A DNA stretch of 64,000 nt, taken from NCBI RefSeq assembly GCF_020171625.1, contig NZ_JAIUZY010000007.1, positions 124,001-188,000 of the forward strand, read 5' to 3'. Source of the DNA: Salipiger bermudensis. GTDB taxonomy: Bacteria; Pseudomonadota; Alphaproteobacteria; Rhodobacterales; Rhodobacteraceae. Position 1 is the stretch's first letter; each line of letters starts with the position of its first letter. Positions 40,377-58,412 of this stretch are shown one piece after another. The position numbers and the translations under genes are program-made. Under the pieces are notes generated by a model. It was given only the letters and a program-made list of their open reading frames with translations. It made no database searches and was not told where the DNA came from.

Positions 40377-41407
40377 GACGCGATCTTCTTCTCGGGGGTG
40401 GCATCCTCTCTCCCCAGGGCGGCATCTACCTCATGACGGTGCCGGTCGAGGCCGAGGACGACGAGGTCGTCATCTGCTCGGCACGGCGGGACAGCGCCAC
40501 GCTTCGGCTCACGGCGCTTACAAACCTCGAAGAGATCCAGAGCATCATTGCCCTGATGGCCCCCTGGGACACGGTCGCCGAGGCCTGCGCGATGACCCCC
40601 GAGGGTGAGCTCTTCTTCCTGCGCCCGGACGAGGCAGAACTGCAAACCATCCCCGGTTCCGGCTACAGCCGGGACGATTCGAAAGGCATCGGGCGCATGA
40701 CCACGCTTGCGCAGGTCGGCGTAGACCTCGTGGCCACCGGATATTCCGGTCAGGTCTACCGCTACTCACACGGTCGCCGAGGCTGGTCGGACATTTCCAT
40801 CCCGGTCTCCCCCTCGGAGTCCCACAAGCCGGTCTTCTATGATGTCATCTCCGGTCGCGGCGACGCGCTCGTCTTCGGCGGCAGCGCGTTGTTCGACATG
40901 GCGATCACCCCGGACATGGAGGCGGCGAACGATGCCGGCGACATCGACGCCCTGATGGACCTGTTCTCCGAGAGTGAGGGTGAGGATGCAATGAGCCTGC
41001 GCCTTTACGATGGCGCGTGGCGCATCGCCGATACCGTTGGAGAACCCGGCGCGATCGTCGCGCTCCTGCCAATGAACACGGGCACGCTCCTCTTCTCCGA
41101 CACCGGCATGATCTATCGCAGCTCGGATTTCGACGCCATCGAGGAGGTCTATCGCCCGGCTCAGCCCGAAGGGTTCGATGACATCAAGATCTGGCAGGGG
41201 CGCCCGCTGCTGCTGTCGGGCAACACGCTGTCGGTGTTTCGCGAGGGCGATCTCGATCCCTTCGATCCGCCGCTGCCGTCCGGCGAGACGTTCTGCCTGT
41301 CGGTGTCCCCGGTCGGCGATCGTATCCTCGCGGTGTTCCCCGACCACGTTCAGCTCTTCGAGGCCGGCAGCTGGACCCGGCTCGAGCCTGAGCTGCCCGA
41401 GGCCTAA
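40373..41407 (+). CDS. Beta-rich repeat protein, candidate immunity protein
   Basis: A 344-residue acidic protein without signal peptide or membrane segment. Repeating units such as GQVYRYSHGRRGWSDISIP, LRLYDGAWRIADTV and the later DTGMIYRSSDFDAIEEVYR suggest a beta-propeller. It overlaps the DUF4150-nuclease gene by ATGA and is the last gene of that operon, the usual place for a cognate immunity protein. Its acidity complements the basic toxin tail. I recognise no named immunity family, so this role is inference. Confidence 0.65.
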   Translation: MRRDLLLGGGILSPQGGIYLMTVPVEAEDDEVVICSARRDSATLRLTALTNLEEIQSIIALMAPWDTVAEACAMTPEGELFFLRPDEAELQTIPGSGYSRDDSKGIGRMTTLAQVGVDLVATGYSGQVYRYSHGRRGWSDISIPVSPSESHKPVFYDVISGRGDALVFGGSALFDMAITPDMEAANDAGDIDALMDLFSESEGEDAMSLRLYDGAWRIADTVGEPGAIVALLPMNTGTLLFSDTGMIYRSSDFDAIEEVYRPAQPEGFDDIKIWQGRPLLLSGNTLSVFREGDLDPFDPPLPSGETFCLSVSPVGDRILAVFPDHVQLFEAGSWTRLEPELPEA

Positions 41408-41420
41408 TCCCCGACCTGCC

Positions 41421-41762
41421 TCACGCCGGCAGCGAGCCCACCAGAAAGGCGCGCACCTTGTCGAGATCGAGCGCTGCCACGGTCAACCCGGTGGCGCTTG
41501 GCTGCAGCATTCGCACCACGAAGAGCTCGCCCGCCTCGGGGTACTCGATATAGCGCTCCTCGGCGACCTTCAGCCCTTCGGACCCCGCCACCCTCAGCCC
41601 GTCGATATGCGCCTCGAGCCGTTCCAGCAGCCGCGCAATGCGCTCGGCATCCATGTCGGGATTGTCGTCGGGGTTGAGCAGCGCGTGGTCGTAGACCGTC
41701 CACAGGAAGGCCGCCTGCTCGGCGTGCTGGCGCAGCATCTCGGGCAAGACGGGCGCCGGCAT
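41421..41762 (-). CDS. Short TIGR02270-like protein, probably truncated
   Basis: A 113-residue protein. PEMLRQHAEQAAFLWTVYDH and RLEAHIDGLRVAGSEG match the N-terminus of TIGR02270-family proteins, which accompany T6SS genes and normally continue for about 400 residues with HEAT-like repeats. Here a stop comes at 41421, and the sequence beyond is the convergent beta-rich protein gene, so the repeat part is absent. Its start overlaps the DUF6484 stop by one base. It may be a remnant or a short functional form. Confidence 0.65.
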   Translation of the reverse strand: MPAPVLPEMLRQHAEQAAFLWTVYDHALLNPDDNPDMDAERIARLLERLEAHIDGLRVAGSEGLKVAEERYIEYPEAGELFVVRMLQPSATGLTVAALDLDKVRAFLVGSLPA

Positions 41763-42184
41763 CAGTTCAGGTTCACCGATCCGCCGCGGATGCGGTTCGA
41801 GGCCGAGGCATGGCTGACGAGATAGCTGCCGCGAATGGTGATGTGGCCGTCGCTCTCCATCACGATCGAGGCCTTGCCGCAGCGCAGCTCGAGGCGGTCC
41901 TTGGCGGTGACCCGGACCCGCTCGCCGTCGCGCACCACCTCGGGTGCGTCCTCGCGCGGGCGCGGCGCGACGATCTTGCCCACGATCAGCGGCCGGGCGC
42001 TGTCGCCATCCTCGTAAAGCAGCGCCACCTCGGAGCCGGTATCCTCTGGCCCGAGATGGGCAAGGCTGCGCGCCGGCACCGCCCGGTCCTCGGGATTGCC
42101 GGCGAAAACCACCAGCGGCAGGCCGTCCTCGAAGCCGAGCAGCAGCCCGATGATCACGCCCTGAATACGCTCCGATACCTGCAT
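41762..42184 (-). CDS. DUF6484 protein of the type VI locus
   Basis: A 140-residue protein. IQGVIIGLLLGFEDGLPLVV and GNPEDRAVPARSL are the DUF6484 core; the C-terminus has GKASIVMESDGHITIRGSYL, nearly the same as the tail of VgrG beta-helices (GKASIQMKKDGTITIKG in the VgrG here). It is probably a small spike-associated or VgrG-like accessory protein. The start at 42184 is the first Met of the conserved domain; upstream extension to 42250 looks non-coding. Confidence 0.75.
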   Translation of the reverse strand: MQVSERIQGVIIGLLLGFEDGLPLVVFAGNPEDRAVPARSLAHLGPEDTGSEVALLYEDGDSARPLIVGKIVAPRPREDAPEVVRDGERVRVTAKDRLELRCGKASIVMESDGHITIRGSYLVSHASASNRIRGGSVNLN

Positions 42185-42255
42185 CTGGCTGACCTCTCTC
42201 TCGACCCCGGTGTGGTGGCGCGGGCGGCGGGCCAAGCCCCGCCCGCGCAAGATCC

Positions 42256-43023
42256 TCAGCTCAGCGCCTGGAACTCGACGCGGCGGTTCTCGTCGGCGCG
42301 CGGGTCGGCCTCGTTGAACGGGAAACGCTCGCCCATGCCGACGGTCTCGAGCCGCGCCGGCGGTAGGCCGCAGTCCTCGATCAGGCGGCGGGCCACTTCC
42401 TTGGCGCGCAGCACCGAGAGCGCCTCGTTATAGGCATCGGAGCCGGCGGAATCGGTGTGGCCCACGATGCGGATCCTGTCGACATCCGCCGCCAGCAGCG
42501 CCGTGCAGACGGTCTGCAGCTTGGGCGCCTGGTCGTCCGCGATCGCGGCGCTGTCGAAGCCGAACTCGATATGCAGGTTGACCTGCAGCTCGGGCTCAAG
42601 CTGGCCGAACACCATCGGCGCATCGCTGGCCGCCGCCAGCAGCGGCCTGTTGGGATCGGCGGGGCGCTGCGGGGCGCCCTCGCTCGTGGCGGTGATCGAC
42701 ACGCCCTGCCCGTCCCGCGTCGGCGCGGCAAGCTCCGGCGCGGTGGTCGCAACCTCTGGCGCAATCTGCTGCGGCTCGGGTGCAGCGCTCGGGTCCGTGT
42801 TGGCCACGACGGGCGCCGCGCTCTCGGCGGTGACATCCTGCACGGTGATCAGCTTGAGGCCGCGGGTCTGGCCCAGGCCGCTGGTCTCGGCCTCTTCGAA
42901 GGCCTGCTTCTGGCGCTCGAAAATCTCGGTCAGATCGTCAACGGACAGCGCGTCCTGCGCGAGCGCCGGCATCGCCAGGGCGCCAAGACAGGACATGGAA
43001 AACAAACTCATTCTAAAAAGCAT
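42256..43023 (-). CDS. OmpA-family secreted protein of the type VI locus
   Basis: A 255-residue protein with a signal peptide (MLFRMSLFSMSCLGALAMPALA, then QDALSV), an Ala/Pro-rich linker of about 100 residues, and a C-terminal OmpA-like peptidoglycan-binding domain (HIEFGFDSAAI, RIVGHTDSAGSDAYNEALS, then RRLIEDCG and ENRRVEF). It would anchor to the cell wall in the periplasm. The start at 43023 follows AGAGAGGTTGAAT. It is divergent from the phosphatase gene. It may reinforce the secretion apparatus or act separately. Confidence 0.88.
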   Translation of the reverse strand: MLFRMSLFSMSCLGALAMPALAQDALSVDDLTEIFERQKQAFEEAETSGLGQTRGLKLITVQDVTAESAAPVVANTDPSAAPEPQQIAPEVATTAPELAAPTRDGQGVSITATSEGAPQRPADPNRPLLAAASDAPMVFGQLEPELQVNLHIEFGFDSAAIADDQAPKLQTVCTALLAADVDRIRIVGHTDSAGSDAYNEALSVLRAKEVARRLIEDCGLPPARLETVGMGERFPFNEADPRADENRRVEFQALS

Positions 43024-43169
43024 ATTCAACCTCTCTGGGAAAAGGGTTTTTCGAATGCTGAAAAAAGAGTAGCATGGCGGGTGTTTGAATACAGCTATTT
43101 TCGGGGGAAGGCGGGGCTGGAAAACCCGCATTGACGCCGAGCCCCACCGGCATTCATCAAGGCGCGCGC
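43024..43169. promoter_or_regulatory. Divergent intergenic region between the OmpA gene and the phosphatase gene
   Basis: A 146-base gap with an AT-rich part (43030-43110). It should hold the promoters for the OmpA-DUF6484 genes to the left and the phosphatase-M15-TssM2-vgrG genes to the right. No consensus promoter stands out. Confidence 0.4.
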
Positions 43170-43928
43170 ATGTCCACGCCCCAGACCCGAAATCCCGTTC
43201 TGAGACCGATGCCGGCGCCCAGCTTTCAAGGGGCTGGCCTCACCCATACGGGCTGCGTCCGCGAGGAGAACGAGGACAGCATTCTCACCGATCCCGCCGG
43301 CCTGCTCTGGGCTGTGGCCGATGGCATGGGCGGCTACGGACACGGCGCCATGGCGTCGGACATGGTGATCGACCAGGTCGCGCTGGTGAGCGATTTCGCC
43401 CCGCCCGCACCGACCCTCCGCGCCCGCCTGCAAGCGGCCAACCGCGCCATCCACGCCAAGGCGCAGGCCCCCGGGATCGGCCAGATGGGCGCCACCGCCG
43501 TGGTCATGCTGATCCAGAACGCCACCGCCCATATCGCCTGGGCCGGCGATTGCCGGGCCTATCTGTTGCGGGCCGGGCAGCTACGGCTGCTGACCCGCGA
43601 TCACACGGTGGTTCAGGAGATGGTCGATCAAGGCCTGCTGAAAGACACCGAGCGGGACCGCCACCCGCAGCGCCACGTGGTCACCCGTGCCGTGGGCGCC
43701 GAGCCCGATCTCGAGGTCGACGACACCGCCGTGCCGCTGGTGCCCGGAGACCGCCTCCTGCTTTGCAGCGACGGGCTCACCGCCGGTCTCGCCGATCAGA
43801 GCATCGCCAACCTCATGCATCGCGACCTGCCCCCGAACGAGATCTGCGCCGAGCTGGTGCGCGCCTGCCTCGAGGCCGGCGCACCGGACAACCTCTCGGT
43901 GATCAGCGTCTTCGCCTCGGAGGGTTGA
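43170..43928 (+). CDS. PP2C-type serine/threonine phosphatase (PppA-like)
   Basis: A 252-residue cytoplasmic phosphatase. The metal-binding and catalytic motifs of PP2C are all present: REENEDSIL, VADGMGGYGHG, GDCRAYLL, LLLCSDGLTAG and the final GAPDNLSVI. In threonine-phosphorylation T6SS pathways PppA reverses PpkA phosphorylation of FHA proteins such as TagH, which is encoded at 56.9-58.4 kb. No PpkA kinase is seen in the window. The ATG at 43170 is preceded by AAGG; a TTG 39 bases upstream was rejected. Confidence 0.9.
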   Translation: MSTPQTRNPVLRPMPAPSFQGAGLTHTGCVREENEDSILTDPAGLLWAVADGMGGYGHGAMASDMVIDQVALVSDFAPPAPTLRARLQAANRAIHAKAQAPGIGQMGATAVVMLIQNATAHIAWAGDCRAYLLRAGQLRLLTRDHTVVQEMVDQGLLKDTERDRHPQRHVVTRAVGAEPDLEVDDTAVPLVPGDRLLLCSDGLTAGLADQSIANLMHRDLPPNEICAELVRACLEAGAPDNLSVISVFASEG

Positions 43929-43931
43929 GCG

Positions 43932-44810
43932 ATGCGGGACGGCGCCCTCATCGGCCCCATCATCATCGCCATCGGCCTGATCGTGGCGGCGATCTGCTTT
44001 GCCGTGGTCGGCGCCCTCCTGCAGACCGCCGACGGCCGCACCGAGCTGCGGCTCGAGCGCGCCGAGGCCGAGATCGCGGACCTGCGCAGGGGCCTCGACA
44101 CGCTGCGCTCCGAGCTGCGCGACGCCGAGGCCGAGGCCGAACGCCTCGAAGAAGAGGTCGCCCTCGCCGCCAGCCGCGCCCCCGCCGCGAGCGCCGCGCT
44201 GCCCGTGCCCGCGTTCGTCCCCGGTGTGGACGAGGTCATCGGCGCCGCTGAGGATGTGCCCGGGACAGAGGAGATGACCGAGGAAATGCGCACCGCCAAG
44301 TCGCGCTTCAACATGGGCATCACCCAGCCCGGCAACCGCGTCATGCTCGAGATCCTGGGCCACCCGCGCAGCACCTATTCGACCACATGTCAGGCGGTGA
44401 CGCAGCCAAGGCTCAAGGCGCTGATGGAAACCCGGCAGGTCGGGCCGATCCGCGTCACCATGATCCGCCCGGCGCTCGACAGCCTCGCCCGCATCGTCGC
44501 CAAGCTCGAGGCGCAGGAACCCGACATCTACGCCGCGCTCGGCACCGCCGGCGCGATCTGCGCCCGGCTGATCCGCGGCTCGCGCAGCGCGGTCTCGAAC
44601 CACAGCTGGGGCACCGCGATCGACGTCAAGCTGCAGGGCCAGCTCGACGGGTTCGGCGATGGCGGCACCCAGTTCGGGCTGCTGCTGCTGGCGGAACTCT
44701 TCAACGAGGAAGGCTGGTACTGGGGCGCGGGCTACCGGCGCGAGGACTCGATGCATTTCGAGGTCGGGGTCGAGACCCTGCGCAAATGGCAGGCCGAGGG
44801 CCTGCTCTGA
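43932..44810 (+). CDS. Membrane-anchored M15-type peptidoglycan peptidase of the type VI locus
   Basis: A 292-residue protein: a transmembrane helix (about 8-30), a coiled coil (about 36-80), an Ala/Pro linker, and a C-terminal M15 (VanY/D,D-carboxypeptidase-like) domain. Zinc ligands are visible in SNHSWGTAIDVK (H224, D231) and EDSMHFEVG (H275), and D272 may be the catalytic acid. It should act on peptidoglycan in the periplasm. TagX, an M15 enzyme, makes room for the T6SS in Acinetobacter; a similar role is plausible here. It lies 3 bases after the phosphatase and 3 before the TssM-like gene. Confidence 0.85.
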   Translation: MRDGALIGPIIIAIGLIVAAICFAVVGALLQTADGRTELRLERAEAEIADLRRGLDTLRSELRDAEAEAERLEEEVALAASRAPAASAALPVPAFVPGVDEVIGAAEDVPGTEEMTEEMRTAKSRFNMGITQPGNRVMLEILGHPRSTYSTTCQAVTQPRLKALMETRQVGPIRVTMIRPALDSLARIVAKLEAQEPDIYAALGTAGAICARLIRGSRSAVSNHSWGTAIDVKLQGQLDGFGDGGTQFGLLLLAELFNEEGWYWGAGYRREDSMHFEVGVETLRKWQAEGLL

Positions 44811-44813
44811 CCG

Positions 44814-47228
44814 ATGGCCCCGTCCCCGCTCAGACAGACCGCCGCTCCGGTGCTCCGCTTCATCGAGGACCTCGACGGCAGGCAGGGCGAGCGCCGCATC
44901 CTCGACGAGGCGGCGCCGCTGCTCGACGGGTTCGAGACAGCCGCGCAGCGGGCCGGCGCGGCACCGGTGGCGATCAAGCCCGCGCGCTACGCGCTGGCGA
45001 TGCTGATCGACCAGCGTGCGCGCCAACTCGAGGGCATCACGCTCAGCACATGGTCGGTGCTGGCACGGCGCAGGCTGTTCGAGGGGCGCGACATCCCGAT
45101 GAGCCGGATCCGCGAATTCCGCGACACCGCCCGGCGCACCGGAATGGACGACCTCGAGGCGTTTCTTGGCGAGATGCTGGAGCGGGCCGAGGCCCTGCGC
45201 GGAGGGCCTCAGAGGCGCCACGGCGGCGGCTGGGGCTGGAAGGCGGCGGCGTTCACACTGCTGCTGGTCGGCGGTCTGGTGGCCTATGCCGCGCTGCTCG
45301 AGTACCGGTTCCAACGCCAGATCGGCGCCGATTTCGAGGCCGAGGCGCTCGCGATCGGGCTTGATCGTCCGCAGGAAGGCGCCGAACTGGTGCGCCGTCT
45401 CGACGCGCTGCGTGACGCCGCCGACCGGGTGTCACAGGTCGCGCAGCAGGCGCCGCTGCGCCGCGTGCTGCGGCTGCCCGTGATCGACAGCGAGACCCGC
45501 GCCGAGGCGGTCTATGCCGAGGCCGCGCGCCGTCAGGTACCGCCGGAGCTGGCACGCGGACTGGAGCAGGTCCTCGCCACCGAGGGCGACGGGCTGGCGC
45601 TCTACGACACTCTGCGCGCGTGGTCGGTGCTGACAGGCGATCAGGGCTGGCAGCCGGGCTGGCTTGCCGGCTGGCTCGAGGCTCACGGCGCGGCGGTGGG
45701 CCTCGACGGTCTGGCCCGGCATGTGGCACCGCTGGAAGGGCCGCTGGCGGTGCAGCCGCAGGACACGCAGATCATGGATCAGACACGCGCCTTCGCCGCC
45801 GAGGTGCCCGAGCCCGCGCGCGCCTGGCTCGAGCTGCTGCGCTCGGACGAGATGCGCGCCCTGCCCGACTGGGTCGCCCCAGCCGCGGTGCCCGGTGTCG
45901 AGACGGTGCTTCTGCGCCGCTCCGGTGCGCCGATCTCGCAGGGCCTCCCCGGCCTCTTCACGACGCAAGGCTGGCAGGCGGCGCGCCGCACCGGCGTGGG
46001 CCTCGCGGTGCAGACCGCCCGCGCCGTGGCTCCCGACATCACCGGCATGGCGCTGCCGCCCGAGAACCGCTCTCCCGACCTGCTGCTCGACCGGCTGCAC
46101 CGCGAGACGGCGGCGGCGTGGAAGGACTGGCTGGCGGATCTGCGGGTGCGGCCCTTCGCCGACCGCGAAACCGCCATCGTGGTCTCCGGGCAGCTCGCAC
46201 AGGCCGAGAACCCGCTCACCCGCCTGCTGCGCGAGGTCTGGGAACAGAGCGGCGGCAATGACCGCAGCCGCAGCCACCAGCAGCAACTCCTGCTCGCACG
46301 CGAGTTCGGGCCGATGATCCAGTATGTCGAGCAGGGAGGAATGGCAGAGATCGCGCGGCTGTTCTCGACCCTCAACGTGGCGCTCGGGGCCGTCGATATC
46401 GACGCCCGCCGCGCCAGCCGGCGCCTGATGACCTTTCAGGACCGCGCGCGCTCCATCGCTGCGCTGTCGAACGCGCCGCGCATCGTGGTGCAGATCGCCG
46501 AGGACGTGCTGGCGCAATCCGCCCGCCCCGCCGCCGAGGACGCGGCGCAGTATCCCCTTGCCCGGCAGTGGCAACAGCAGGTCTTCCCGCTCTGTCGCAA
46601 CGCCGTGAGCGGGCGCTACCCGTTCCAGAACGGCGGCGATGCAAGCCTCGCCGAGGTCGCTGCCCTGCTCGGCCCGCAAGGCACGCTGACGTCGTTCCTG
46701 ACCACCTTCGCCCGGCCGATGCTCGAGACCGGCGAGCGCCCGTGGCGCTGGAAGCCCGAGGCGCGCTTTGCCGGGATGCAACCCGAAAGCGCCGCGTTCC
46801 TCGAACGCGCGGCGCAGATCTCGCAGGCGCTGTTCACCGCCGACGGTCGGCTCGAGCACAGCCTGACGCTGGCGGCGCTGGCCGAGCGCGGCCAGACCCT
46901 CGTGGCGATCGGCGGCACCGCGGCGCCGGTGCGTGCCAGCGGCACGCCCGCGACGCTCGACTGGCCGGGCCCGCGCCCCGAGGCCGGGATCGAGGTGGCG
47001 TTCCGCGACAGCACCGATGCGGCGCGGCTGATCGAGACCGGCCCGTGGGGGCTTTACCGCCTGATCGACGGCACGCGGCTGCGGCTGCGCGACGACGGCG
47101 CGCGCGCCCTGCTCGATCTGCGCAACAGCGAGGGGCGCGTGTTCCTCGAGCTCGGGTTTCCGGCACCGCTCAACCCCGTGTCGATCCGACCGGTCCTGAG
47201 CGCCTTCGACTGCCCCGCGAGCCTGTAA
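44814..47228 (+). CDS. TssM-like protein lacking the NTPase domain, with a DotU-like N-terminus
   Basis: An 804-residue protein. Residues 1-130 resemble DotU/TssL (PARYALAMLIDQRARQ). A single transmembrane helix lies at about 142-162. The rest resembles the periplasmic part of TssM: FPLCRNAVSGRYPF, LLGPQGTLTSFLTTFARPML, RPWRWKPEA, LDWPGPRPEAG, ETGPWGLYRLID and a final FDCP. The same landmarks occur in the full TssM at 50.1-53.7 kb (FCVSATAGRYPF, WPGP, ETGSWAILR, FTCP). There is no Walker A site. It looks like a paralogue fused to a shortened TssL-like domain. Confidence 0.8.
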   Translation: MAPSPLRQTAAPVLRFIEDLDGRQGERRILDEAAPLLDGFETAAQRAGAAPVAIKPARYALAMLIDQRARQLEGITLSTWSVLARRRLFEGRDIPMSRIREFRDTARRTGMDDLEAFLGEMLERAEALRGGPQRRHGGGWGWKAAAFTLLLVGGLVAYAALLEYRFQRQIGADFEAEALAIGLDRPQEGAELVRRLDALRDAADRVSQVAQQAPLRRVLRLPVIDSETRAEAVYAEAARRQVPPELARGLEQVLATEGDGLALYDTLRAWSVLTGDQGWQPGWLAGWLEAHGAAVGLDGLARHVAPLEGPLAVQPQDTQIMDQTRAFAAEVPEPARAWLELLRSDEMRALPDWVAPAAVPGVETVLLRRSGAPISQGLPGLFTTQGWQAARRTGVGLAVQTARAVAPDITGMALPPENRSPDLLLDRLHRETAAAWKDWLADLRVRPFADRETAIVVSGQLAQAENPLTRLLREVWEQSGGNDRSRSHQQQLLLAREFGPMIQYVEQGGMAEIARLFSTLNVALGAVDIDARRASRRLMTFQDRARSIAALSNAPRIVVQIAEDVLAQSARPAAEDAAQYPLARQWQQQVFPLCRNAVSGRYPFQNGGDASLAEVAALLGPQGTLTSFLTTFARPMLETGERPWRWKPEARFAGMQPESAAFLERAAQISQALFTADGRLEHSLTLAALAERGQTLVAIGGTAAPVRASGTPATLDWPGPRPEAGIEVAFRDSTDAARLIETGPWGLYRLIDGTRLRLRDDGARALLDLRNSEGRVFLELGFPAPLNPVSIRPVLSAFDCPASL

Positions 47229-47325: not shown

Positions 47326-49671
47326 ATGACAGACCGAATTGCCGAGCTGACAACCCCGATCACCACCGGCGGCGCCGGCGACCTGACCTTCTCGCGGATG
47401 ACCGGGCACGACGCGATCAGCAGCTGCTTCCGCTACGAGGTGATCGCGCTCAGCGAAGATCCCGACATTCCGGCGAGCGAGCTGCTCGGACAGGTCTGCA
47501 CCGTCGCGGCCCGCACCAACACGCTCGACGAGAGCCAGACCCGCCACTTCTGCGGCATCGTCGACCAGTTCGCCTTTCTCGGCACGGAAAGCGATGCCTT
47601 CGAGGTCGTCTACGGCTACCGGCTCGTGCTGCGCCCGGCGCTCTGGCTGCTCTCGAAAGCGAGCGACAACCGCATCTTTCAGGAAATGTCGGTGCCCGAG
47701 ATCATCAGCCAGATTCTCGACGAGACCGGCTTCCCGGAGTACGAGCTGCGGCTGAACGGCAGCTACGATCCGCGGATCTACTGCGTGCAATACGGCGAGA
47801 GCACGCTCGATTTCCTGCAGCGCCTGATGGAGCACGAGGGGATCTTCTACTTTCACGAATTTCGCGAGCAGGGCCATACGCTCATCATCGCCGACAATCT
47901 GGACTCGCTCGTGCCGCAGGCCGATCTGCCGGTGTTGCGCTTCGAGCCCGACGCCACCGACGCGCATCGCGGCGCCGGCGTGATCACCAGCTGGCGGCGG
48001 CAGGCCACGGTGGTGACCGGCACCCATACGCAGACTGATTACGATTTCGAAAAACCCTCTGCCGATCTCAGCACCCAGCTGTCCGATCCCAAGAACCACA
48101 GCGCGAGCGAGATGGAGCGCTATGTCTATCCGGGCGTCTATACCGAGATTGGCGGCGGCCAGCGCCTGACCGATCTGCGTCTCGAGGCGGAACAGGGCAG
48201 CCATTTCGAGATGAGCGCCGACAGCACGGCGAGTTTGCTCTGGTCCGGCAACAGGTTCGACTTCACCGATTTCCCGCGGCAGGCAGAGAACGATGCCTAT
48301 TTCATCCTGCGCGCCGAGTACGAGCTCTGGGACGGCCAGTATTTCGCCGGCGGCGCCGGCAGGCCTGGCGAAAGCCGCGACAGGGCGGGCGACGAGGCGA
48401 TGGGCTTCAACGCCCGCTACCGGGTGCTGCCGGCGGCCTCGCGCTGGCGTCCGCCGCACGCGACCCCGCGCCCGGTGATGCGCGGCCCGCAGACCGCCGT
48501 TGTCGTGGGCCCGGGCGGCGAGGAGATCTACACCGACCAGTACAGCCGCGTGAAGGTGCAGTTCCATTGGGACCGGGTCGGCGCGCGAGACGAGAACGCG
48601 TCCTGCTGGGTGCGTGTGAGCGCGGCCTGGGCTGGCTCGGGCTGGGGCTTCATCCAGATCCCGCGCATCGGTCAGGAGGTGATCGTCGACTTCCTCGAGG
48701 GCGATCCGGACCGGCCGATCATCACCGGTCGGGTCTACAACGCCGAGCAGATGCCGCCCTATGGCCTGCCCGGAGAGGCCACGAAATCGGGCTGGAAATC
48801 GAACTCCTCGCCCGGTGGCGGTGGCTGGAACGAGTTGATGTTCGAGGACAAGGCCGGCTCGGAGCTGGTCTACTTTCAGGCCGAGAAGGACCATGACGAA
48901 CTGGTCAAGAACAACGAGACCCGCCACATCGGCAACGACTGGTCCGAAGAGGTGGTACACGACGCGACGCAATGGGTCGGCAACAACCGCGACGAGACCG
49001 TCGACAACTGCAAGACCACCCATGTGAAGGTCGATCGCACCGTCAATATCGACCACGACGACACCGAGACCGTGGGCAACAACCGCGCTTTGACGGTGGG
49101 CGTGAACGAAACCATCAGGGTCGGCAGCAATTCGACCGAAACCATCGGCATCAACCACAGCCAGACCGTGGGCAGCAACCAGACGGTGAACGTCGGCGCC
49201 AACCGGGTCGACACCGTCGCGATCTCCGAGACCCGCACCGTGGGCGCGGCGCAGACCAACACCATCGGGGCGGCGCGTCAGGTCACCGTGGGGGCGAGCC
49301 AGGGGCACGGCATCGGCGGCTCGGATGCCTGGAAGATCGGCGCCAGCCAGTCGGTCTCGGTGGGCGCCGATCAGGTCACGCAGGTCGGCAGGAACCATTC
49401 GCTCAGCGTGGGCGAGATGAGCTCGATCTCGGTCGGCAAGGACGCCATTGTCGCGATCGGCGAGAACGGCGTGGTCTCGGTGGGCAAGGATCTCACCATC
49501 GCCGCCGAGGACAGCATCAGCCTGACCTGCGGCAAGGCCAGCATCCAGATGAAGAAGGACGGCACGATCACCATCAAGGGCAAGGACATCACCATCGATG
49601 GTTCTGGGAAGATCACCGCCAAGGCGGCGAGCGACATGACGCTGAAGGGCTCGAAGATCAACCAGAACTGA
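47326..49671 (+). CDS. tssI: VgrG spike protein (TssI)
   Basis: A 781-residue trimeric spike protein. The gp27-like part covers about 1-380 (FLQRLMEHEGIFYFHEF, RQATVVTG), the gp5-OB fold about 390-500 (YSRVKVQFHWDR, VRVSAAWAGSGWGF, PRIGQEVIVDFLEGDPDRPI), then a long gp5-like beta-helix with V-G-x-N repeats (VGNNRDETV, VGSNQTVNVGANR). It ends in KASIQMKKDGTITIKG with no extra effector domain. The ATG at 47326 follows GAGGGG. Its last 14 bases overlap the convergent tagF gene. The DUF4150 protein at 39.4 kb probably sits on this tip. Confidence 0.94.
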   Translation: MTDRIAELTTPITTGGAGDLTFSRMTGHDAISSCFRYEVIALSEDPDIPASELLGQVCTVAARTNTLDESQTRHFCGIVDQFAFLGTESDAFEVVYGYRLVLRPALWLLSKASDNRIFQEMSVPEIISQILDETGFPEYELRLNGSYDPRIYCVQYGESTLDFLQRLMEHEGIFYFHEFREQGHTLIIADNLDSLVPQADLPVLRFEPDATDAHRGAGVITSWRRQATVVTGTHTQTDYDFEKPSADLSTQLSDPKNHSASEMERYVYPGVYTEIGGGQRLTDLRLEAEQGSHFEMSADSTASLLWSGNRFDFTDFPRQAENDAYFILRAEYELWDGQYFAGGAGRPGESRDRAGDEAMGFNARYRVLPAASRWRPPHATPRPVMRGPQTAVVVGPGGEEIYTDQYSRVKVQFHWDRVGARDENASCWVRVSAAWAGSGWGFIQIPRIGQEVIVDFLEGDPDRPIITGRVYNAEQMPPYGLPGEATKSGWKSNSSPGGGGWNELMFEDKAGSELVYFQAEKDHDELVKNNETRHIGNDWSEEVVHDATQWVGNNRDETVDNCKTTHVKVDRTVNIDHDDTETVGNNRALTVGVNETIRVGSNSTETIGINHSQTVGSNQTVNVGANRVDTVAISETRTVGAAQTNTIGAARQVTVGASQGHGIGGSDAWKIGASQSVSVGADQVTQVGRNHSLSVGEMSSISVGKDAIVAIGENGVVSVGKDLTIAAEDSISLTCGKASIQMKKDGTITIKGKDITIDGSGKITAKAASDMTLKGSKINQN

Positions 49672-50139: not shown

Positions 50140-53100
50140 TCAGAACCCGCGCGGGCAGGTGAAGCCCGAGAACATCTCGAGATCGAAGGGGTTCTCCACC
50201 GAGTTGGCGCGCAGGTTGAAGCTCGCCGAGTAGCCGCGCGCGCCGAGCCGCAGGCCGAACACCTCGGGCAGCGCCGTGGCCGAGAGTGCGCCCTTGCGCA
50301 GCATCCGCAGGATCGCCCAGCTTCCGGTCTCCGAGGTGATGACCTCGCCGCCGCCGTCCACCGGCGCGAAGCTCAGGGTGATCATGTTGGTCTGGTCGGG
50401 CCCCGGCCAAGTCATCGGCACCGGGCGTGCGGCGGCGTTGAAATACGACAGCACCTGCCCGTCGACATTCAGCGTCACCCGGCTGGCATTGGGCGACAGG
50501 TCGCGCGGCTCGAGGCTGAAGGCCATGACCGGCCCGGCGCCGCCGGGAAACAGTGCGTCGCGCATCGACCGGGCGTTCTCGAACGGCGCCAGCACCGCAG
50601 GTTCGAGCCCGAAATCGGCGCGCCACTGCCACGGCCGCACGGTGGTGTCGATATAGGCTGCGAGATGCGTGTCGATGAAGGCATCGATCAACCCGCCACG
50701 CCCGAAGAGCCGGGCGAAATCGAGCGTGTTCACGTCGATCGCCGAACTCTGGTCGAACGGGTAGCGGCCCGCCGTGGCCGAGACGCAGAACGGCAGCACA
50801 TCGGCGCGCCAGCGCGCGTTGAGCTGCGCCAGAACCGCCTCGCGGGTGACGCTGATCGCGTCTCCGGCGAGGCCCGAGATCCAGTCGTCGATCGGGTCGG
50901 GCAGCGCCGCCGCCTCGTTGGCGATGGCCCCGGTGAGCTTTGGCAGACCGCCGCGCGCCAAGAGCGCGGCCTGCGGATCGGGGCTGGCCGAAACGGTCTG
51001 CAGCTCGTTCGACAGCGCGGTAAGGGCCGTGACCGCATCGCCCAGCAGCGGCGGCTGGCCGTCGACCTCCTCGACGGTGGCGCGGATCGGGGCGAAATGG
51101 TCCGAGACGGGGGTGCCCGGCGGTTCGGGCTCGGGCGCGTCCGGCCCGCCACCCGCGCTGGCGATGCGGGTGCCGGTCCTGACCAGCTTGCCAAGTTTGC
51201 CCAGCTTGGAAAGCGCCTTGGTGCCCTCGCGCTGCGCGGCGGCGTTGTCGGCGAGCCCGCCGCTCTCGTCAGCCTCGGGCCGTGCAAGATGGGTCTCGCT
51301 CACCACCGCGCTCAACAGCCGCTTCAGCGCGCTGTCCGCCGAGGCCAGATCCTTGAGGTTCTGGCGCGCCTGCTCGAGATCCGAGATCGGGGTCAGGCGG
51401 ATGTCGCGCAGGAAGCCGTCCCACTGGGCGATGAAATCGTCGTAGTAGAGCTTGAGCACATCCGCTTCGAGCGTGTCGACCGAGGCCTCGGCGCTTTCGT
51501 TGCAGCCGCCCGCGAACACCGCCCGGTCAAGCTGCGCCTGCGCCGCCACCTCGGGCACCAGAGGCAGCACGCTCTCGTGGAAGCCCGCGAAGGTGAAGGC
51601 GCCGGGCAGGCCCACGCGCAGCGACTTCTCCGACAGCCGGGTCAGCACCCGCGCCCCGTTGGGGCCTGCGACCTCGGCGGGCACCCATTCGGGCAGCGAG
51701 GCCACCGTCGGGTCGCTGCGCAGGCTGCGGTAGGCGCGCACCGCGAGCGGAATGGTGCAGATGCTCTCGAGCGCGGTCGAGATCAGCGCCGCGTCGGGTT
51801 CGATCTTCTGCTCCTCGCCGCCCATGCGTTGCAGCGCCGCGATCTGGTGGTCGATGCTCTCTTCGGTGGGGAACACGTCGATCGGCGCGAAGTCGGGCAG
51901 CACCGTCTGCCACCAGACATTGAGGAACGCGGCATCGTAGGGCGCCTGCCCGGTCAACATCTGGTAGGCCTTGAGTCCGCCGAGCAGGAATTCCGGGTCG
52001 CGGGCATGACGCCACATCGTCGCCTCGAGCAGCGCCACCATGCGCGGCTCGAGCACATTGCGCAGCGTGTGGTCATAGGCGATCTCGTGCACCCGGGCGA
52101 GCTCGGGCTCGGCAGTCGGGCCCAACACCGTGAGCGGCGAGGATGGCAGCGTGGTGGCGGCGTTCACCGTCTCGTTGGCCGCGTCGAGCGCGAGGTCGAG
52201 ATCGAGCGGATCGGTGGGCGCCTGCCGCGAGGCGACATTTGCCAACCGCGCCGAGAGGGCCGCGAGCTGGCGCTCCTGATCGGCGAGCGCCCCGTTGTAG
52301 CGCAGGTAGGAGAACAGGAAGGCGGTGCCCAGCAGAGCCGTCACCAGCACCGCCGCCGCCAGCGTGCCCCGCCACGCCCAGCGCCGGCGGTCCTCGGCGC
52401 GCGGATCGAAGCGGCCAAGCCCGGCCTCGGGGAAGATCAGCTCGCTCAGCAGGTTGCGTAGAAAGAAGCTGCGGGTGTCGCGATGGGCGCGCCGCTCGGG
52501 GCGCGGCGCATCCATGCCCAGCGCCGCGGCGGTGCCTGCCACCAGCCGGTCGATCGGCGAGCCCTCCTGCGTCGCCGAGCTGAAATAGACGCCGCGCAGC
52601 CACGGGCTGTCCTCGTAGCGGCTTTCCCCGAACGCCGCCTCGACCAGCACCTTGAGCGGTCGGGTCAGCGCCTCGACCTGCGCCGGGAAGCGGAAGATCT
52701 CGGCCCGCTCCTCAAGCGGCAGGTCGTCGGCGATACGCCCGTCGAGCCGTGCCTCGAGCGCTTCCTGAAGCACCTTCATCTCGCGCTCGACGGTGATCGC
52801 GTCGACCCGGTCGGCGGTGCCCAGCGTGGCGCCCCAGACCTGCTCGCGCTCGCGGGTGTTGAGGTCGCCGAAGAAGCTCTCGAAGCCGGGGATCAGATCG
52901 GCCTTGGTGATCATCAGGTAGACCGGCAGCTTCAGCCCGGTCTGCGCCGAGAGTTCCGCAAGGCGCTTGCGGATCTCGCGCCCGTGCTCGCGGATCGCGG
53001 TGTCGTCGCCGGCAAGCTCCTGCGTCGACAGCGTCAGGATCACGCCGTTGAGCGCCCGCCGCCCCCGGTGCCTGACCAGAAGCTCGACAAAGCCCTTCCA

Positions 53101-53694
53101 CTCGGCAGCGTCGACCTCCGGGTCGGACTGCTGCTGCACGTAGCGCCCGGCGGTGTCGATCAGCACCGCGTCCTCGGTGAAGAACCAGTCGCAGTTGCGG
53201 GTGCCGCCGATGCCCTTGAGATCGTCCGACAGGTCGATGGGGAAATGCAGCCCCGACTGGCGCAGTGCCGTGGTCTTGCCGGTGCCCGGCGGGCCGATGA
53301 ACACGTACCACGGCATGTCGCGCAGGAACTTGCGCCCACCAAGCTTGGAGCGCTTCATCTGCTCGAGCACGCCTTGGAACTTAGCGCTGACCTCGGCGAG
53401 GTTTCCCTCGCCCGGCGCCATCGCGCTCTCGGGTGGAGGCGCGGCCAGTTCCGACACGAAGGCGCGGTTGGCCTTGGCGGCGCGGATCTGGCGAACCAGC
53501 ATCGACAGCAGCCAGAGGATCACGATCCCCCCGATCACGACGACCCGCACCAGCTCTGCTGCGAGCGGCTGGGTCGCGCCGATGCTGACCAGCGGCCCGT
53601 AGAACCAGATCAGCGTGCAGAGCACCGCGAGGCCGATCAGCGTCCACAGGACGCGGGAGAACAGGACCCGAATGATCGCCTTGAGAACCCCCAT
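50140..53694 (-). CDS. tssM: TssM (IcmF-family) type VI inner-membrane core protein
   Basis: A 1184-residue protein. Two N-terminal transmembrane helices (about 13-33 and 48-68) precede a cytoplasmic NTPase domain with Walker A GPPGTGKT at 134-141. A third helix lies near 450-470. The long periplasmic IcmF/TssM-C part ends in FTCPRGF. It forms the membrane core with TssL and TssJ. The start at 53694 is the first Met of the first helix; an in-frame extension to 53847 is antisense-like sequence within tssL. It begins 4 bases after the tssL stop. Confidence 0.95.
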   Translation of the reverse strand: MGVLKAIIRVLFSRVLWTLIGLAVLCTLIWFYGPLVSIGATQPLAAELVRVVVIGGIVILWLLSMLVRQIRAAKANRAFVSELAAPPPESAMAPGEGNLAEVSAKFQGVLEQMKRSKLGGRKFLRDMPWYVFIGPPGTGKTTALRQSGLHFPIDLSDDLKGIGGTRNCDWFFTEDAVLIDTAGRYVQQQSDPEVDAAEWKGFVELLVRHRGRRALNGVILTLSTQELAGDDTAIREHGREIRKRLAELSAQTGLKLPVYLMITKADLIPGFESFFGDLNTREREQVWGATLGTADRVDAITVEREMKVLQEALEARLDGRIADDLPLEERAEIFRFPAQVEALTRPLKVLVEAAFGESRYEDSPWLRGVYFSSATQEGSPIDRLVAGTAAALGMDAPRPERRAHRDTRSFFLRNLLSELIFPEAGLGRFDPRAEDRRRWAWRGTLAAAVLVTALLGTAFLFSYLRYNGALADQERQLAALSARLANVASRQAPTDPLDLDLALDAANETVNAATTLPSSPLTVLGPTAEPELARVHEIAYDHTLRNVLEPRMVALLEATMWRHARDPEFLLGGLKAYQMLTGQAPYDAAFLNVWWQTVLPDFAPIDVFPTEESIDHQIAALQRMGGEEQKIEPDAALISTALESICTIPLAVRAYRSLRSDPTVASLPEWVPAEVAGPNGARVLTRLSEKSLRVGLPGAFTFAGFHESVLPLVPEVAAQAQLDRAVFAGGCNESAEASVDTLEADVLKLYYDDFIAQWDGFLRDIRLTPISDLEQARQNLKDLASADSALKRLLSAVVSETHLARPEADESGGLADNAAAQREGTKALSKLGKLGKLVRTGTRIASAGGGPDAPEPEPPGTPVSDHFAPIRATVEEVDGQPPLLGDAVTALTALSNELQTVSASPDPQAALLARGGLPKLTGAIANEAAALPDPIDDWISGLAGDAISVTREAVLAQLNARWRADVLPFCVSATAGRYPFDQSSAIDVNTLDFARLFGRGGLIDAFIDTHLAAYIDTTVRPWQWRADFGLEPAVLAPFENARSMRDALFPGGAGPVMAFSLEPRDLSPNASRVTLNVDGQVLSYFNAAARPVPMTWPGPDQTNMITLSFAPVDGGGEVITSETGSWAILRMLRKGALSATALPEVFGLRLGARGYSASFNLRANSVENPFDLEMFSGFTCPRGF

Positions 53695-56407: not shown

Positions 56408-56860
56408 TCAGGCGGTGGTCACGCTCAGGCCGCCGCTGCCGACCGAGATCATCAGGCCGATATCCTCGGCGGGGGCGGCGATCTTGCGGCGCACGATCTT
56501 GCCCGCGGGGTCGCGGAAGCCGGCGGTGACGCCGATGGTGGTGACGCCGGTCTGCAACGTGATGGGGCGGGTGGCGGTGGCACCGGGCGCAAGCACGATC
56601 TGGTCCGACCGGACCAGTTCACCGCCAAGCGCCGTGGCCGGGTCCTGCAGCGCGAAGGGGTCCGCCGCGTCGAAGGCGCTGGAGCCCGAGAGCTGGAGCA
56701 CGCTTACGGTGACCGGACGGTCGGCGCCGTCGGGGCCGGGGTTCATCCCGGCCGCGCCCGAAACCCGCACGGTCATCACCGGTGCTGCGGTCTCCATGCA
56801 GCCCGCCAGCGCCAGCCCGCAGCCTCCGGTGATAAGGAAATTGCGACGATGGATCAGCAT
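56408..56860 (-). CDS. tssJ: TssJ outer-membrane lipoprotein, possibly Tat-exported
   Basis: A 150-residue lipoprotein. The signal reads MLIHRRNFLITGGCGLALAGC, with lipobox LAGC and a twin-arginine RRNFL motif, so export may use Tat. The mature part is a beta-sandwich (PVTVSVLQLSGSSAFDAADP, then GVTTIGVTAGFRD) as in TssJ, which ties TssM to the outer membrane. The start at 56860 follows GAGGAGGGACTGAC; the Met at 56884 lies before it and is less likely. Its ATG is just past the tagH stop. Confidence 0.88.
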   Translation of the reverse strand: MLIHRRNFLITGGCGLALAGCMETAAPVMTVRVSGAAGMNPGPDGADRPVTVSVLQLSGSSAFDAADPFALQDPATALGGELVRSDQIVLAPGATATRPITLQTGVTTIGVTAGFRDPAGKIVRRKIAAPAEDIGLMISVGSGGLSVTTA

Positions 56861-56861
56861 G

Positions 56862-58412
56862 TCAGTCCCTCCTCTGGTTTTCATAGGCGTCGCGGAAATC
56901 CGCCCCGACCTCGCCGAGGAACTGCTCCTCGGCGGAGCGCGCGATTTCGCGGTAACGCTCCTCGTAAAGCTGCCACAGCTTGGCGCTGCGCCCGCCCGCG
57001 ATCAGGCTCTCGAGCAGGCCGACAGTCTCCATCTCGCGAGAGATCTCGGCGGGATCGAACTTGTCGACCATGCGACGCAGCGCGGTCTGCAGCGCCGACC
57101 AGGTCCGCACCTGATGATCGGTGAGATCGCGGAACGCCTCGGCCAGCGCCGCTTCGGGCGCGAGATATCCACGCCCGCGCGGGCGGATCAGCGCCTCGAG
57201 CCCCTCCTCGGTGGTGGCGAGGAATTTCAGCGGGTTGACGTCCTGGCTGGCGATGATGGTCTGGGCCACGCGCACCTTCTGGCGCTCCTTGGCGCGGGTG
57301 CGCAGCAGCAGCATGACGCCCTCGACCATGGCGCGCATGGCCGCACCGATGCGCTCGATGTCGGCATCGCTCCAGTCGTCGCGGCCCCCGGGCTCGAGCC
57401 CCATGCCCCGCAACAGCGCCTCGAGCCGGTCGCCCTGCCCGCTCGCCGGTGACGGAGCGCTGGCTGCGGGCTGCCGGGGCTGGGCCGGCGGCACGGAGGC
57501 GGCAGGCGGATGGGTGCGCTCCACCGGTCGCGCGACGGCAGCCACGCACGGCTCGGCACGCGGCTCGGGCGCGCTCTCCGGCTCCGGCGCGGCTGGCGGG
57601 CCGAAAGAAACCTCTGCCGGCAGGATCGGCGTCTCATCCCCGTCCGGCTCTTCGGGTGGATCGACCTGCGCCACGGGCGGCGCAAGCCCTGCCGAGAGAT
57701 CGGCGAACAGGCCGGACCGACGCGGCGACTGCTCCGGGTCGGGCGCGGCTTCAGTACCAGAGCGGCGCGCACCGATGTCCTCTTCGTCTGAGAAATAGCC
57801 CCGTCCGGGCCGCTCGCGCTGGCGCGGTGCCGCGTCCTCGCGCCGCGGCGCGCCCGGGGCCGCGCCACGCAGATCAAGCTCGAACGGGTCGGCCTGATCC
57901 AGCGGCCTCGGCGGTCTGGGCGCGTCCTTCTCCCAGCTCAGCGCCTCCTCCCCATCGCGGCGCAGACCGAAGGGATCGGGCAGCGAGGCCGGGCGCTCGG
58001 GCGGCAGGGCAACCTCCTCGGGCGGGCCGAAATCGAAACCGCCAGCCCCCCCCCTCTCGGGCGCCACGGCGCCACTGTTCGGCGCATCCAAAGCAGCACT
58101 GGCCGTCTCCACGCGCAGGGTGAAATCCCCCAGCCGCAGCCGCATCCCCGGCTCCAGCGGCACCGCGTTGCCGGTGCCCACCGGGTTGGCGGCGTTGTCG
58201 ATGAACAGCCCGCCAGAGGAGGCATCGGTGACCATCACCCGTCCGTCCTCGTCCGACAGCACGCAATGCCGGCGCGACACGAACATCTCGGGATCGTCGA
58301 GCTGCCAGTCGGCATCGTCGCTGCGCCCGATGCTGAGCCGCCCGCCGTCAAAGACCATCTCGGTCACCGCCTGCGGGCGCGGGGCCGCCTCGATCACCAG
58401 TCGCAGGCTCAT
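56862..58412 (-). CDS. tagH: FHA-domain type VI protein (TagH/Fha)
   Basis: A 516-residue cytoplasmic protein. The FHA domain (about 1-100) has GRLSIGRSDDADWQLDDPEM, then VSRRHCVL and LFIDNA, which recognise phosphothreonine. A long disordered Pro/Glu/Arg-rich linker (about 110-330) leads to a C-terminal TagH domain (about 330-510) with RAMVEGVMLLLRTRAKERQK and NPLKFL. In known systems Fha is phosphorylated by PpkA and dephosphorylated by PppA to switch secretion on. Its start overlaps the tssG stop by ATGA. Confidence 0.93.
   Translation of the reverse strand: MSLRLVIEAAPRPQAVTEMVFDGGRLSIGRSDDADWQLDDPEMFVSRRHCVLSDEDGRVMVTDASSGGLFIDNAANPVGTGNAVPLEPGMRLRLGDFTLRVETASAALDAPNSGAVAPERGGAGGFDFGPPEEVALPPERPASLPDPFGLRRDGEEALSWEKDAPRPPRPLDQADPFELDLRGAAPGAPRREDAAPRQRERPGRGYFSDEEDIGARRSGTEAAPDPEQSPRRSGLFADLSAGLAPPVAQVDPPEEPDGDETPILPAEVSFGPPAAPEPESAPEPRAEPCVAAVARPVERTHPPAASVPPAQPRQPAASAPSPASGQGDRLEALLRGMGLEPGGRDDWSDADIERIGAAMRAMVEGVMLLLRTRAKERQKVRVAQTIIASQDVNPLKFLATTEEGLEALIRPRGRGYLAPEAALAEAFRDLTDHQVRTWSALQTALRRMVDKFDPAEISREMETVGLLESLIAGGRSAKLWQLYEERYREIARSAEEQFLGEVGADFRDAYENQRRD

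What the first reader, a model, noticed from the sequence alone, without database searches (positions are those of the whole stretch)
44814..47228. Second TssM-like protein without the NTPase, fused to a DotU-like N-terminus
Seen: it shares GRYPF, PW-W, WPGP, ETG-W and C-terminal F-CP landmarks with the full TssM 5 kb away. It has only one transmembrane helix, no Walker A, and a 130-residue N-terminus with a DotU-like ARYALAMLID motif. Full TssL and TssM are also present. This looks like a hybrid of the two core membrane proteins in a separate operon with an M15 peptidase, a phosphatase and VgrG. Inference: it may form a modified membrane complex or dock the peptidase.
Basis: partly seen in the sequence, partly recalled or inferred. 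Interest (0 to 1): 0.7.

Follow-up and report, generated by a model that had tools for sequence, protein, structure and literature searches.

The report
TssL-TssM hybrid with wall-cutting enzyme
Next to a complete bacterial injection machine (type VI secretion system) sits a conserved gene for one protein that joins the front part of one membrane-anchor protein to the rear part of another, beside a cell-wall-cutting enzyme gene, and the related machines examined that lack it carry a second pair of anchor proteins instead.

Summary
Window 44814-47228 (+) encodes an intact 804-aa protein: TssL/DotU-type cytoplasmic domain (1-132), one transmembrane helix, TssM periplasmic region; no NTPase. DotU support: Pfam DotU in 12 of 14 orthologues at E<=0.1, best 6.3e-8; an AlphaFold model (pLDDT 90) whose three best PDB matches are TssL (Z 11.7-12.6, next 7.0). 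It forms one clade across Rhodobacterales and rhizobia, is under purifying selection, and keeps the order PP2C - M15 peptidase - hybrid in 13 of 13 loci. Of 70 Rhodobacterales genomes with a TssM-like match, the 11 with the hybrid are exactly the 11 whose TssM is >=62% identical to the window's. In rhizobia and kin, loci with this TssM carried either hybrid + M15, or a second full TssL + TssM with PP2C and, where covered, an M23 peptidase. So the hybrid probably is a one-chain version of a second TssL-TssM set coupled to a wall hydrolase. Function is inferred, not shown. Ten searches of an open-access library showed no description. New variant of a known kind.

The parts
44814..47228 (+). TssL-TssM hybrid (called TssM2 in notes and scripts), 804 aa
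44814..45209 (+). residues 1-132: TssL/DotU-type cytoplasmic domain, six helices
   Evidence: AF2 pLDDT 90.3, pTM 0.85; TssL structures Z 11.7-12.6, next 7.0; hhalign E 3.7e-7; Pfam DotU in 12 of 14 members at E<=0.1
45243..45299 (+). residues 144-162: single transmembrane helix, more R/K before than after it (N-terminus inside)
   Evidence: hydropathy
45381..47225 (+). residues 190-804: TssM-type periplasmic region (IcmF-related, helical, C2-like)
   Evidence: Pfam; TIGR03348 partial match; PDB 4y7l TssM E 3.4e-10 with the family profile
43932..44810 (+). M15 peptidase with N-terminal hydrophobic segment (TagX-like); SxHxxGxAxD and MHFE invariant in the 10 aligned proteins
   Evidence: Pfam PF13539 1.4e-11; alignment
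43170..43928 (+). PP2C-type Ser/Thr phosphatase (first ATG at 43170; listed ORF starts TTG 43131)
42256..43131 (-). OmpA-family protein, divergent neighbour kept in 13 of 13 loci
   Evidence: Pfam; synteny
47326..49671 (+). VgrG (first ATG 47326; listed ORF starts TTG 47275)
50140..53694 (-). core TssM with NTPase, Walker A and three hydrophobic helices
   Evidence: TIGR03348 1156 bits
53699..55057 (-). core TssL, DotU + OmpA
56408..56884 (-). core TssJ
   Evidence: PF12790 match G000:C7:180438-180776 = window 56438-56776

Best explanation
The hybrid is a dedicated second membrane subunit of this type VI secretion machine: a one-chain equivalent of a second TssL-TssM pair. Shown by computation: a TssL-like domain in front of one transmembrane helix and a TssM periplasmic region; co-inheritance with one TssM type; a kept operon with an M15 cell-wall peptidase and a PP2C phosphatase; alternation, in relatives, with a module of a second full TssL and TssM, PP2C and an M23 peptidase. 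Inferred: the cytoplasmic domain sits among the TssL/TssM cytoplasmic domains or on the baseplate; the periplasmic region assembles beside core TssM, recruits and perhaps activates the M15 endopeptidase so that the peptidoglycan opens only where the complex inserts; PP2C and the Ser/Thr kinase gate this step.
For: Domain anatomy. Of 70 Rhodobacterales genomes with a match, 69 have a TssM at E<=1e-60; the hybrid is in exactly the 11 whose TssM is >=62% identical to the window's, the other 58 reach at most 37%. Of the 60 plasmid rows listed, 43 have a TssM >=56% identical; 38 of these have the hybrid, the other 5 (Mesorhizobium) a second TssM >=99% identical to that of WSM1271. Of 15 genomes of G889's family with this TssM (>=67% to R. 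etli's), 1 has hybrid + M15; 14 have no full-length hybrid and no comparable M15; 13 of these have a second TssM 14-20 kb away on the same contig, the 14th has second-TssL and TssM pieces on two contigs. In the 13 fetched, second TssL, second TssM and PP2C were seen in 13 of 13, M23 in 12 of the 12 whose stretch reaches that far. A DotU domain plus TssM region in one chain, or TssL + TssM as two genes, each beside a wall peptidase and PP2C, points to one job. Precedents in print: TagX (same peptidase domain) interacts with TssM in Acinetobacter (PMC10564176, passages); the TssM C-terminal domain stimulates MltE in EAEC (PMC10433429, passages). The periplasmic part is better kept (0.47-0.57 mean identity) than the DotU part (0.38), and the M15 catalytic domain best (0.73).
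Against: No interaction was tested. M15 also occurs without the hybrid: 33 of the 59 genomes of the set of 70 that lack the hybrid have an M15 relative, e.g. Leisingera, so M15 does not need it in general. The periplasmic part had no usable structure model (pLDDT mostly under 50). The DotU fold match, though clearly ahead of the rest, is to a small helical domain, for which the tool warns that Z under about 13 may mean a common arrangement; plain Foldseek gave E 1.8. A tree with hybrid and second TssM held together is not rejected (p 0.23), but neither is one with hybrid and core TssM (p 0.09). The alternation rests on related loci, many near-copies, not on independent events. Low conservation of the DotU part speaks against a tight cytoplasmic interface.
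Confidence: 0.5

Rival explanations
1. Purely structural partner: the hybrid takes a fixed set of TssM/TssL positions in a mixed membrane complex (EAEC has two TssM per fivefold repeat), whatever the peptidase does.
For: Co-inheritance with one TssM type in 11 of 11 genomes; TssM-type region kept to the C-terminus; TssJ:TssM:TssL 3:2:2 in EAEC (PMC10433429, passages); TssJ in 10 of 11 hybrid genomes against 6 of 59 others.
Against: Does not explain why a wall peptidase lies next to it in 13 of 13 loci and why the alternative module also carries one; TssJ occurs in 6 TssM-bearing genomes without the hybrid.
Confidence: 0.22
2. Negative regulator: a TssM without NTPase caps or poisons the membrane complex until kinase and PP2C signalling releases it.
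For: No NTPase; operon with PP2C; a Ser/Thr kinase gene in the same cluster just past the window.
Against: A decoy would not need a folded DotU domain, nor alternate with a full second TssM that keeps a Walker A (8 of 8 scanned); present in every genome of this TssM type in the Rhodobacterales set (11 of 11).
Confidence: 0.1
3. A separate envelope complex, not part of the tail machine, using DotU/IcmF parts for another purpose.
For: IcmF and DotU also serve type IVB secretion (recalled; NCBIfam NF038226 weak match); in L044 only vgrG, OmpA, PP2C and M15 of the query genes lie near the hybrid.
Against: Core TssM and TssL lie beside it in 12 of 13 loci and T6SS genes in the rhizobial loci read; vgrG is next to it in 13 of 13 loci.
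Confidence: 0.1
4. Degenerating leftover of a second TssL/TssM pair without function.
For: Faster change than core TssM; coding split between two frames in 2 of 9 hybrid genomes of the family sample (G1016, G1027).
Against: dN/dS 0.14; many invariant residues over 14 orthologues down to 44% identity; open frame without stops in 11 of 11 genomes of the order sample.
Confidence: 0.05

Closest known systems
TssM (IcmF/VasK; TIGR03348, PF06761/PF21070/PF06744)
   Same: periplasmic IcmF-related, helical and C2-like regions; TM helix in front of them
   Different: no NTPase domain, no Walker A, one TM helix instead of three, DotU domain in their place; own clade with stem 2.13 changes per column
TssL/DotU (PF09850)
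   Same: six-helix cytoplasmic domain whose model matches TssL crystal structures 4v3i, 3u66, 7thw; N-in single TM
   Different: fused to a TssM region; 19.5 bits in the window protein, under Pfam's cut-off; no OmpA domain
TagX (L,D-endopeptidase of Acinetobacter/Burkholderia T6SS; Weber 2016, PMC5061870, section 8 part 1 and passages)
   Same: compare the neighbour gene: membrane-anchored protein with C-terminal PF13539, in a T6SS cluster
   Different: TagX has two predicted TM segments; no TssL-TssM hybrid is mentioned in the parts read; no TagX sequence was compared here
Second TssL-TssM module of Mesorhizobium and relatives (this work)
   Same: TssL + TssM + PP2C + wall peptidase added to the same type of core machine
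   Different: two full-length proteins, NTPase kept, M23 instead of M15, a TagH next to it in 9 of 13 loci
TagY of Burkholderia T6SS-1 (PMC6612558, passages)
   Same: membrane protein encoded beside tagX
   Different: short N-terminal part, one TM, linker and a C-terminal region with four cysteines; no TssM region described
Acinetobacter TsmK membrane complex (PMC10564176, passages)
   Same: an extra protein tying TssL, TssM and TagX together
   Different: TsmK is ketoacyl-synthase-like, not TssM-like

Membership tests
TssM | periplasmic IcmF-related + C2-like regions | tested here: met
   at E<=0.1: PF06761 and PF06744 in 14 of 14 members, PF21070 in 8 of 14; window protein over the cut-offs of all three
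TssM | cytoplasmic NTPase domain (IcmF-related_N) with Walker A | tested here: not met
   absent; no Walker A in 17 of 17
TssM | three TM helices | tested here: not met
   one helix in 16 of 17, plus one weak extra segment in the 17th; the scan is crude: it gave 2 to 4 helices for true TssM
TssM | TIGR03348 equivalog cut-off | tested here: not met
   223 bits against 388
TssM | binds TssJ | not testable with these tools
   -
TssL/DotU | DotU cytoplasmic fold | tested here: met
   Z 12.6/12.3/11.7 to three TssL, next 7.0; Foldseek ranks TssL first but only at E 1.8, prob 0.85, TM 0.64; helical-bundle caution of the tool noted
TssL/DotU | Pfam DotU gathering score | tested here: not met
   window protein 19.5 < 27 bits; best member E 6.3e-8
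TssL/DotU | protein ends after the TM or carries an OmpA domain | tested here: not met
   continues into a TssM region; no OmpA match
TagX (neighbour gene 43932-44810) | C-terminal PF13539 with M15 metal/active-site residues | tested here: met
   1.4e-11; SxHxxGxAxD and MHFE invariant in 10 of 10 aligned; the meaning of the motif is recalled
TagX (neighbour gene 43932-44810) | direct homology to Acinetobacter TagX; L,D-endopeptidase activity | not tested
   no TagX sequence was fetched; phmmer against PDB sequences gave no M15 relative

The most novel reading that the evidence does not exclude
One clade of alphaproteobacterial type VI secretion machines needs two unequal TssL-TssM sets, one docking the tail and one opening the cell wall, and in Rhodobacterales and some rhizobia the second set has been squeezed into one chain (DotU domain - one TM - TssM periplasmic region) working with an M15 endopeptidase.
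Probability: 0.35. Interest if true: 0.8.

Novelty: new variant of a known kind. Interest (0 to 1): 0.62.

Why it matters
How T6SS membrane complexes get through the peptidoglycan is open for most systems; TagX and the borrowed MltE are the enzymes named in the passages read (PMC10433429). Here a wall peptidase, a phosphatase and a stripped TssL-TssM chain travel together and alternate with a second full TssL-TssM set that carries another peptidase family, in bacteria such as Paracoccus, Salipiger and Rhizobium that are easy to handle. That makes the question directly testable, and it suggests that TssL and TssM can be reduced to one chain without the NTPase.

Tried and rejected
A TagY identity was rejected (PMC6612558 passages). 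A recent duplicate of the co-located TssM was rejected: the 17 hybrids form one clade, 100/100 support, stem 2.13. Descent from the second TssM is undecided: AU p 0.23 held together, against 0.09 for hybrid + core TssM. The higher DotU and periplasmic scores against other machine types may only reflect that the core TssL/TssM are themselves diverged. A TssJ requirement was considered: TssJ is in 10 of 11 hybrid genomes (in the 11th, G272, the contig ends before its expected place) and 6 of 59 others, so TssJ does not imply the hybrid. The full-length AlphaFold model was useless beyond residue 130 (mean pLDDT 41.8); partner complexes were not predicted. The one viral-contig scan confirmed no relative. 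A sigma-70/terminator scan gave nothing above chance. The module-3 genes of R. etli Mim1 (PMC10215855, section 24 and passages) are other genes.

Rows dropped and limits: in the trees cls_L101 and cls_L105 were left out because their longest frame held no Walker A and looked antisense, and one near-copy (secM_Mciceri1284); one search used 9 of 17 hybrids, 8 of 13 fetched second TssM and one of Mesorhizobium. One search used the 12 genomes with all four genes out of 14. Of the 10 TssL rows in the profile, three (L064, L074, L075) had been picked up by the hybrid's own profile, so that comparison is not fully independent; Pfam DotU is. One search listed 40 of 140 records, 60 of 346, 25 of 303; a second TssM in the 38 hybrid plasmids was not excluded record by record. 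The genome searches scored only the best 2-3 first-look candidates. In one search the TssM pair gave no value (an in-frame stop in the stretch given).
Full report
1. The observation. Window 44814-47228 (+) is an open frame of 804 codons. Pfam finds IcmF-related (194-478, 8.4e-38), IcmF_helical (581-675), IcmF_C (711-780) and, below its cut-off, DotU (5-80, 8.3e-4). The NTPase model that the neighbouring full TssM matches (IcmF-related_N, 6.4e-82) is absent. No Walker A in 17 of 17 orthologues against 14 of 14 TssM scanned with them. A simple hydropathy scan shows one helix in 16 of 17 (144-162 in the window protein) and a weak extra segment in the 17th, with more K/R before than after it in 14 of 17; the same scan gives 2 to 4 helices for true TssM. 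The gene starts 3 nt after the M15 gene's stop, and the M15 gene 3 nt after the PP2C stop.

2. The N-terminus looks like a TssL cytoplasmic domain. Each of 14 orthologues scanned alone: DotU in 12 at E<=0.1, best 6.3e-8. Profile against a profile of 10 TssL: E 3.7e-7, probability 92.9%, over 84 columns; three of those ten rows had been found with the hybrid's own profile. In the reverse direction the hybrid's profile gave matches confined to its N-terminus in frames of 298-850 aa: 20 in the phylum sample of 398 genomes at E<=1e-3 per genome; three such loci from the class search were read and are DotU-bearing TssL by eye. The domain folded alone gives pLDDT 90.3, pTM 0.85. Against PDB chains its best matches are TssL of Vibrio cholerae (Z 12.6, 128 aligned, rmsd 3.8), EAEC (12.3) and Yersinia pestis (11.7); the next, designed proteins, have 7.0; the full-length model likewise put three TssL chains first, 12.0, 12.0, 11.5, then 6.4. 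Two cautions: plain Foldseek ranks TssL first but without a significant E-value (1.8; prob 0.85, TM 0.64), and the tool warns that for helical bundles Z under about 13 can mean a common arrangement. Sequence and fold together make the whole TssL cytoplasmic domain, diverged, the best reading. Alignments of the hybrid with TssM begin between residues 115 and 149 in seven other genomes, which suggests that the membrane helix corresponds to the last one of TssM.

3. Relatives. The window's organism is close to Salipiger bermudensis (92% over the hybrid). Full-length relatives, own genome included: 11 of 292 genomes of the order, 1 of 385 of the class, 9 of 394 of the family, two of them split between frames, 2 of 398 of the phylum, both of the window's class. 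Plasmids: 38 of the 40 rows listed, 26 records with at least 80% of the query covered in one place. In 13 of 13 related loci the order OmpA (divergent), PP2C, M15, hybrid, VgrG is kept; core TssM and TssL follow on the opposite strand in 12 of 13, a TagF match in 9 of 13 (L044 has no core gene match in its fetched stretch). In the three rhizobial loci read the order OmpA, PP2C, M15, hybrid is kept beside TssH and a Ser/Thr kinase; in R. etli TssJ, TssL and TssM lie further along. The window's own cluster continues past its end with TssB, TssA, TssH and such a kinase.

4. Co-inheritance. Of the 70 Rhodobacterales genomes with a match, 69 have a TssM at E 1e-60 or better; 11 of these are 62-100% identical to the window's and the rest at most 37%; the 11 are exactly the hybrid bearers, each with one TssM at that cut-off among the candidates scored. 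TssJ: 10 of the 11 against 6 of 59 (Fisher 2e-7, phylogeny not accounted for). M15: 11 of 11 against 33 of 59.

5. The alternative module. Of the 60 plasmid rows listed, 43 have a TssM at least 56% identical to the window's; 38 of these have the hybrid. The other five, all Mesorhizobium, are not among the hybrid rows and have a second TssM at >=99% to that of strain WSM1271, within 16 kb of the core one. The two whose annotation I read carry TagH, TssL, TssM, PP2C, kinase, DUF1036 and M23 peptidase beside the core cluster (OmpA genes within the stretch in one of them), and no M15 match in the stretches. Among 180 genomes of the family of G889 (unnamed; its TssM is 98% identical to that of R. 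etli, so probably Rhizobiaceae and kin), 15 have this TssM type. G889 has hybrid and M15. The other 14 have no full-length hybrid and no comparable M15 (two weak hits over 110-111 residues elsewhere). Thirteen of the 14 have a second TssM on the same contig 14-20 kb away; the 14th, G1371, is broken into contigs: a second-TssL frame lies on the contig of its core TssM and a TssM end on another. In the 13 fetched, second TssL, second TssM and PP2C are present in 13 of 13, M23 in 12 of 12 covered (34-84% identical), kinase in 10 of 12 covered, TagH next to them in 9 of 13. Every locus of this TssM type that I examined has one of the two modules; none lacked both. The sets overlap in part (for example Sulfitobacter S223, whose plasmid coordinates agree with G115) and hold near-copies, so no probability is attached.

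6. Origin. In trees of the periplasmic region hybrids, second TssM and core TssM are each one clade with 100/100 support. Which of them are sisters is unresolved. By profile score the hybrid's DotU domain resembles TssL of other machine types (7 proteins, median 35.2 bits) and second-module TssL (14, median 25.5) far more than core TssL of its own type (14, median 0.7); its periplasmic part scores 160-195 against six of the seven other-type TssM (94 for the seventh), 132-150 against core TssM and 94-150 against second TssM. Those other types include Leisingera-like machines that also carry an M15 gene, OmpA, PP2C and a kinase but no hybrid. This fits a module borrowed from such a machine, but core TssL is itself diverged, so it is a lead only.

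7. Mechanism. Mean pairwise identity among 12 genomes is lowest in the hybrid's DotU domain and TM (0.38, 0.34), higher in its periplasmic parts (0.47-0.57), highest in the M15 catalytic domain (0.73); core TssL DotU 0.65 and core TssM 0.62-0.70 for comparison. The periplasmic side thus seems the working side. In Acinetobacter, TagX, a T6SS peptidase with the same Pfam domain, is needed for Hcp secretion, cleaves between L-Ala and D-Glu (PMC5061870, section 8 part 1) and interacts with TssM (PMC10564176, passages). In EAEC the TssM C-terminal domain stimulates MltE (PMC10433429, passages). From these I infer that the hybrid recruits and perhaps activates M15 at the assembling complex. The structural-partner, decoy and separate-complex rivals are not excluded.

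8. Literature. Ten searches of the open-access library and the passages read showed no description of a DotU-TssM hybrid or of its alternation with a second TssL-TssM; NCBI names the gene 'ImcF-related family protein' in the records seen. Subscription papers are not covered.

9. Verdict. Real, conserved, and a new variant of T6SS membrane equipment; the functional role is a grounded but untested inference.

Noticed in passing
window 38350-39381: Ketoacyl-synthase-like protein (PF00109 weak, 0.0013) between DUF2169 and PAAR-like genes, also in R. etli (53%); Acinetobacter TsmK, a membrane-complex protein, has a ketoacyl-synthase-like fold (PMC10564176, passages). A link is possible but untested.
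   Followed up: no
window 39378-41407: Tox-PAAR-like protein whose first 191 residues are 77% identical in S. bermudensis while the rest finds no match there, followed by a 344-aa protein without Pfam match: candidate effector and immunity pair.
   Followed up: no
window 41762-42250 (-): 162-aa DUF6484 protein, 70% identical in R. etli, where it lies beside VgrG.
   Followed up: no
L080, L081 (Leisingera caerulea, Rhodobacteraceae bacterium SC52): Another T6SS type with M15, OmpA, PP2C and kinase but no hybrid; chemotaxis genes (CheA, CheW, MCP) lie next to it in Leisingera.
   Followed up: partly
G1016:C3 and G1027:C102: Hybrid gene split between two frames: frameshift or assembly error.
   Followed up: no
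L043 and L045: VgrG matches are interrupted in Paracoccus methylarcula and Salipiger bermudensis, and core TssM is in two pieces in P. methylarcula; masked stretches or frameshifts not checked.
   Followed up: no
G036, G168, G185, G191, G197, G229: A second, divergent TssM in six Rhodobacterales genomes without the hybrid, on another contig or far away (in G168 and G229 37-45 kb away on the same contig).
   Followed up: no
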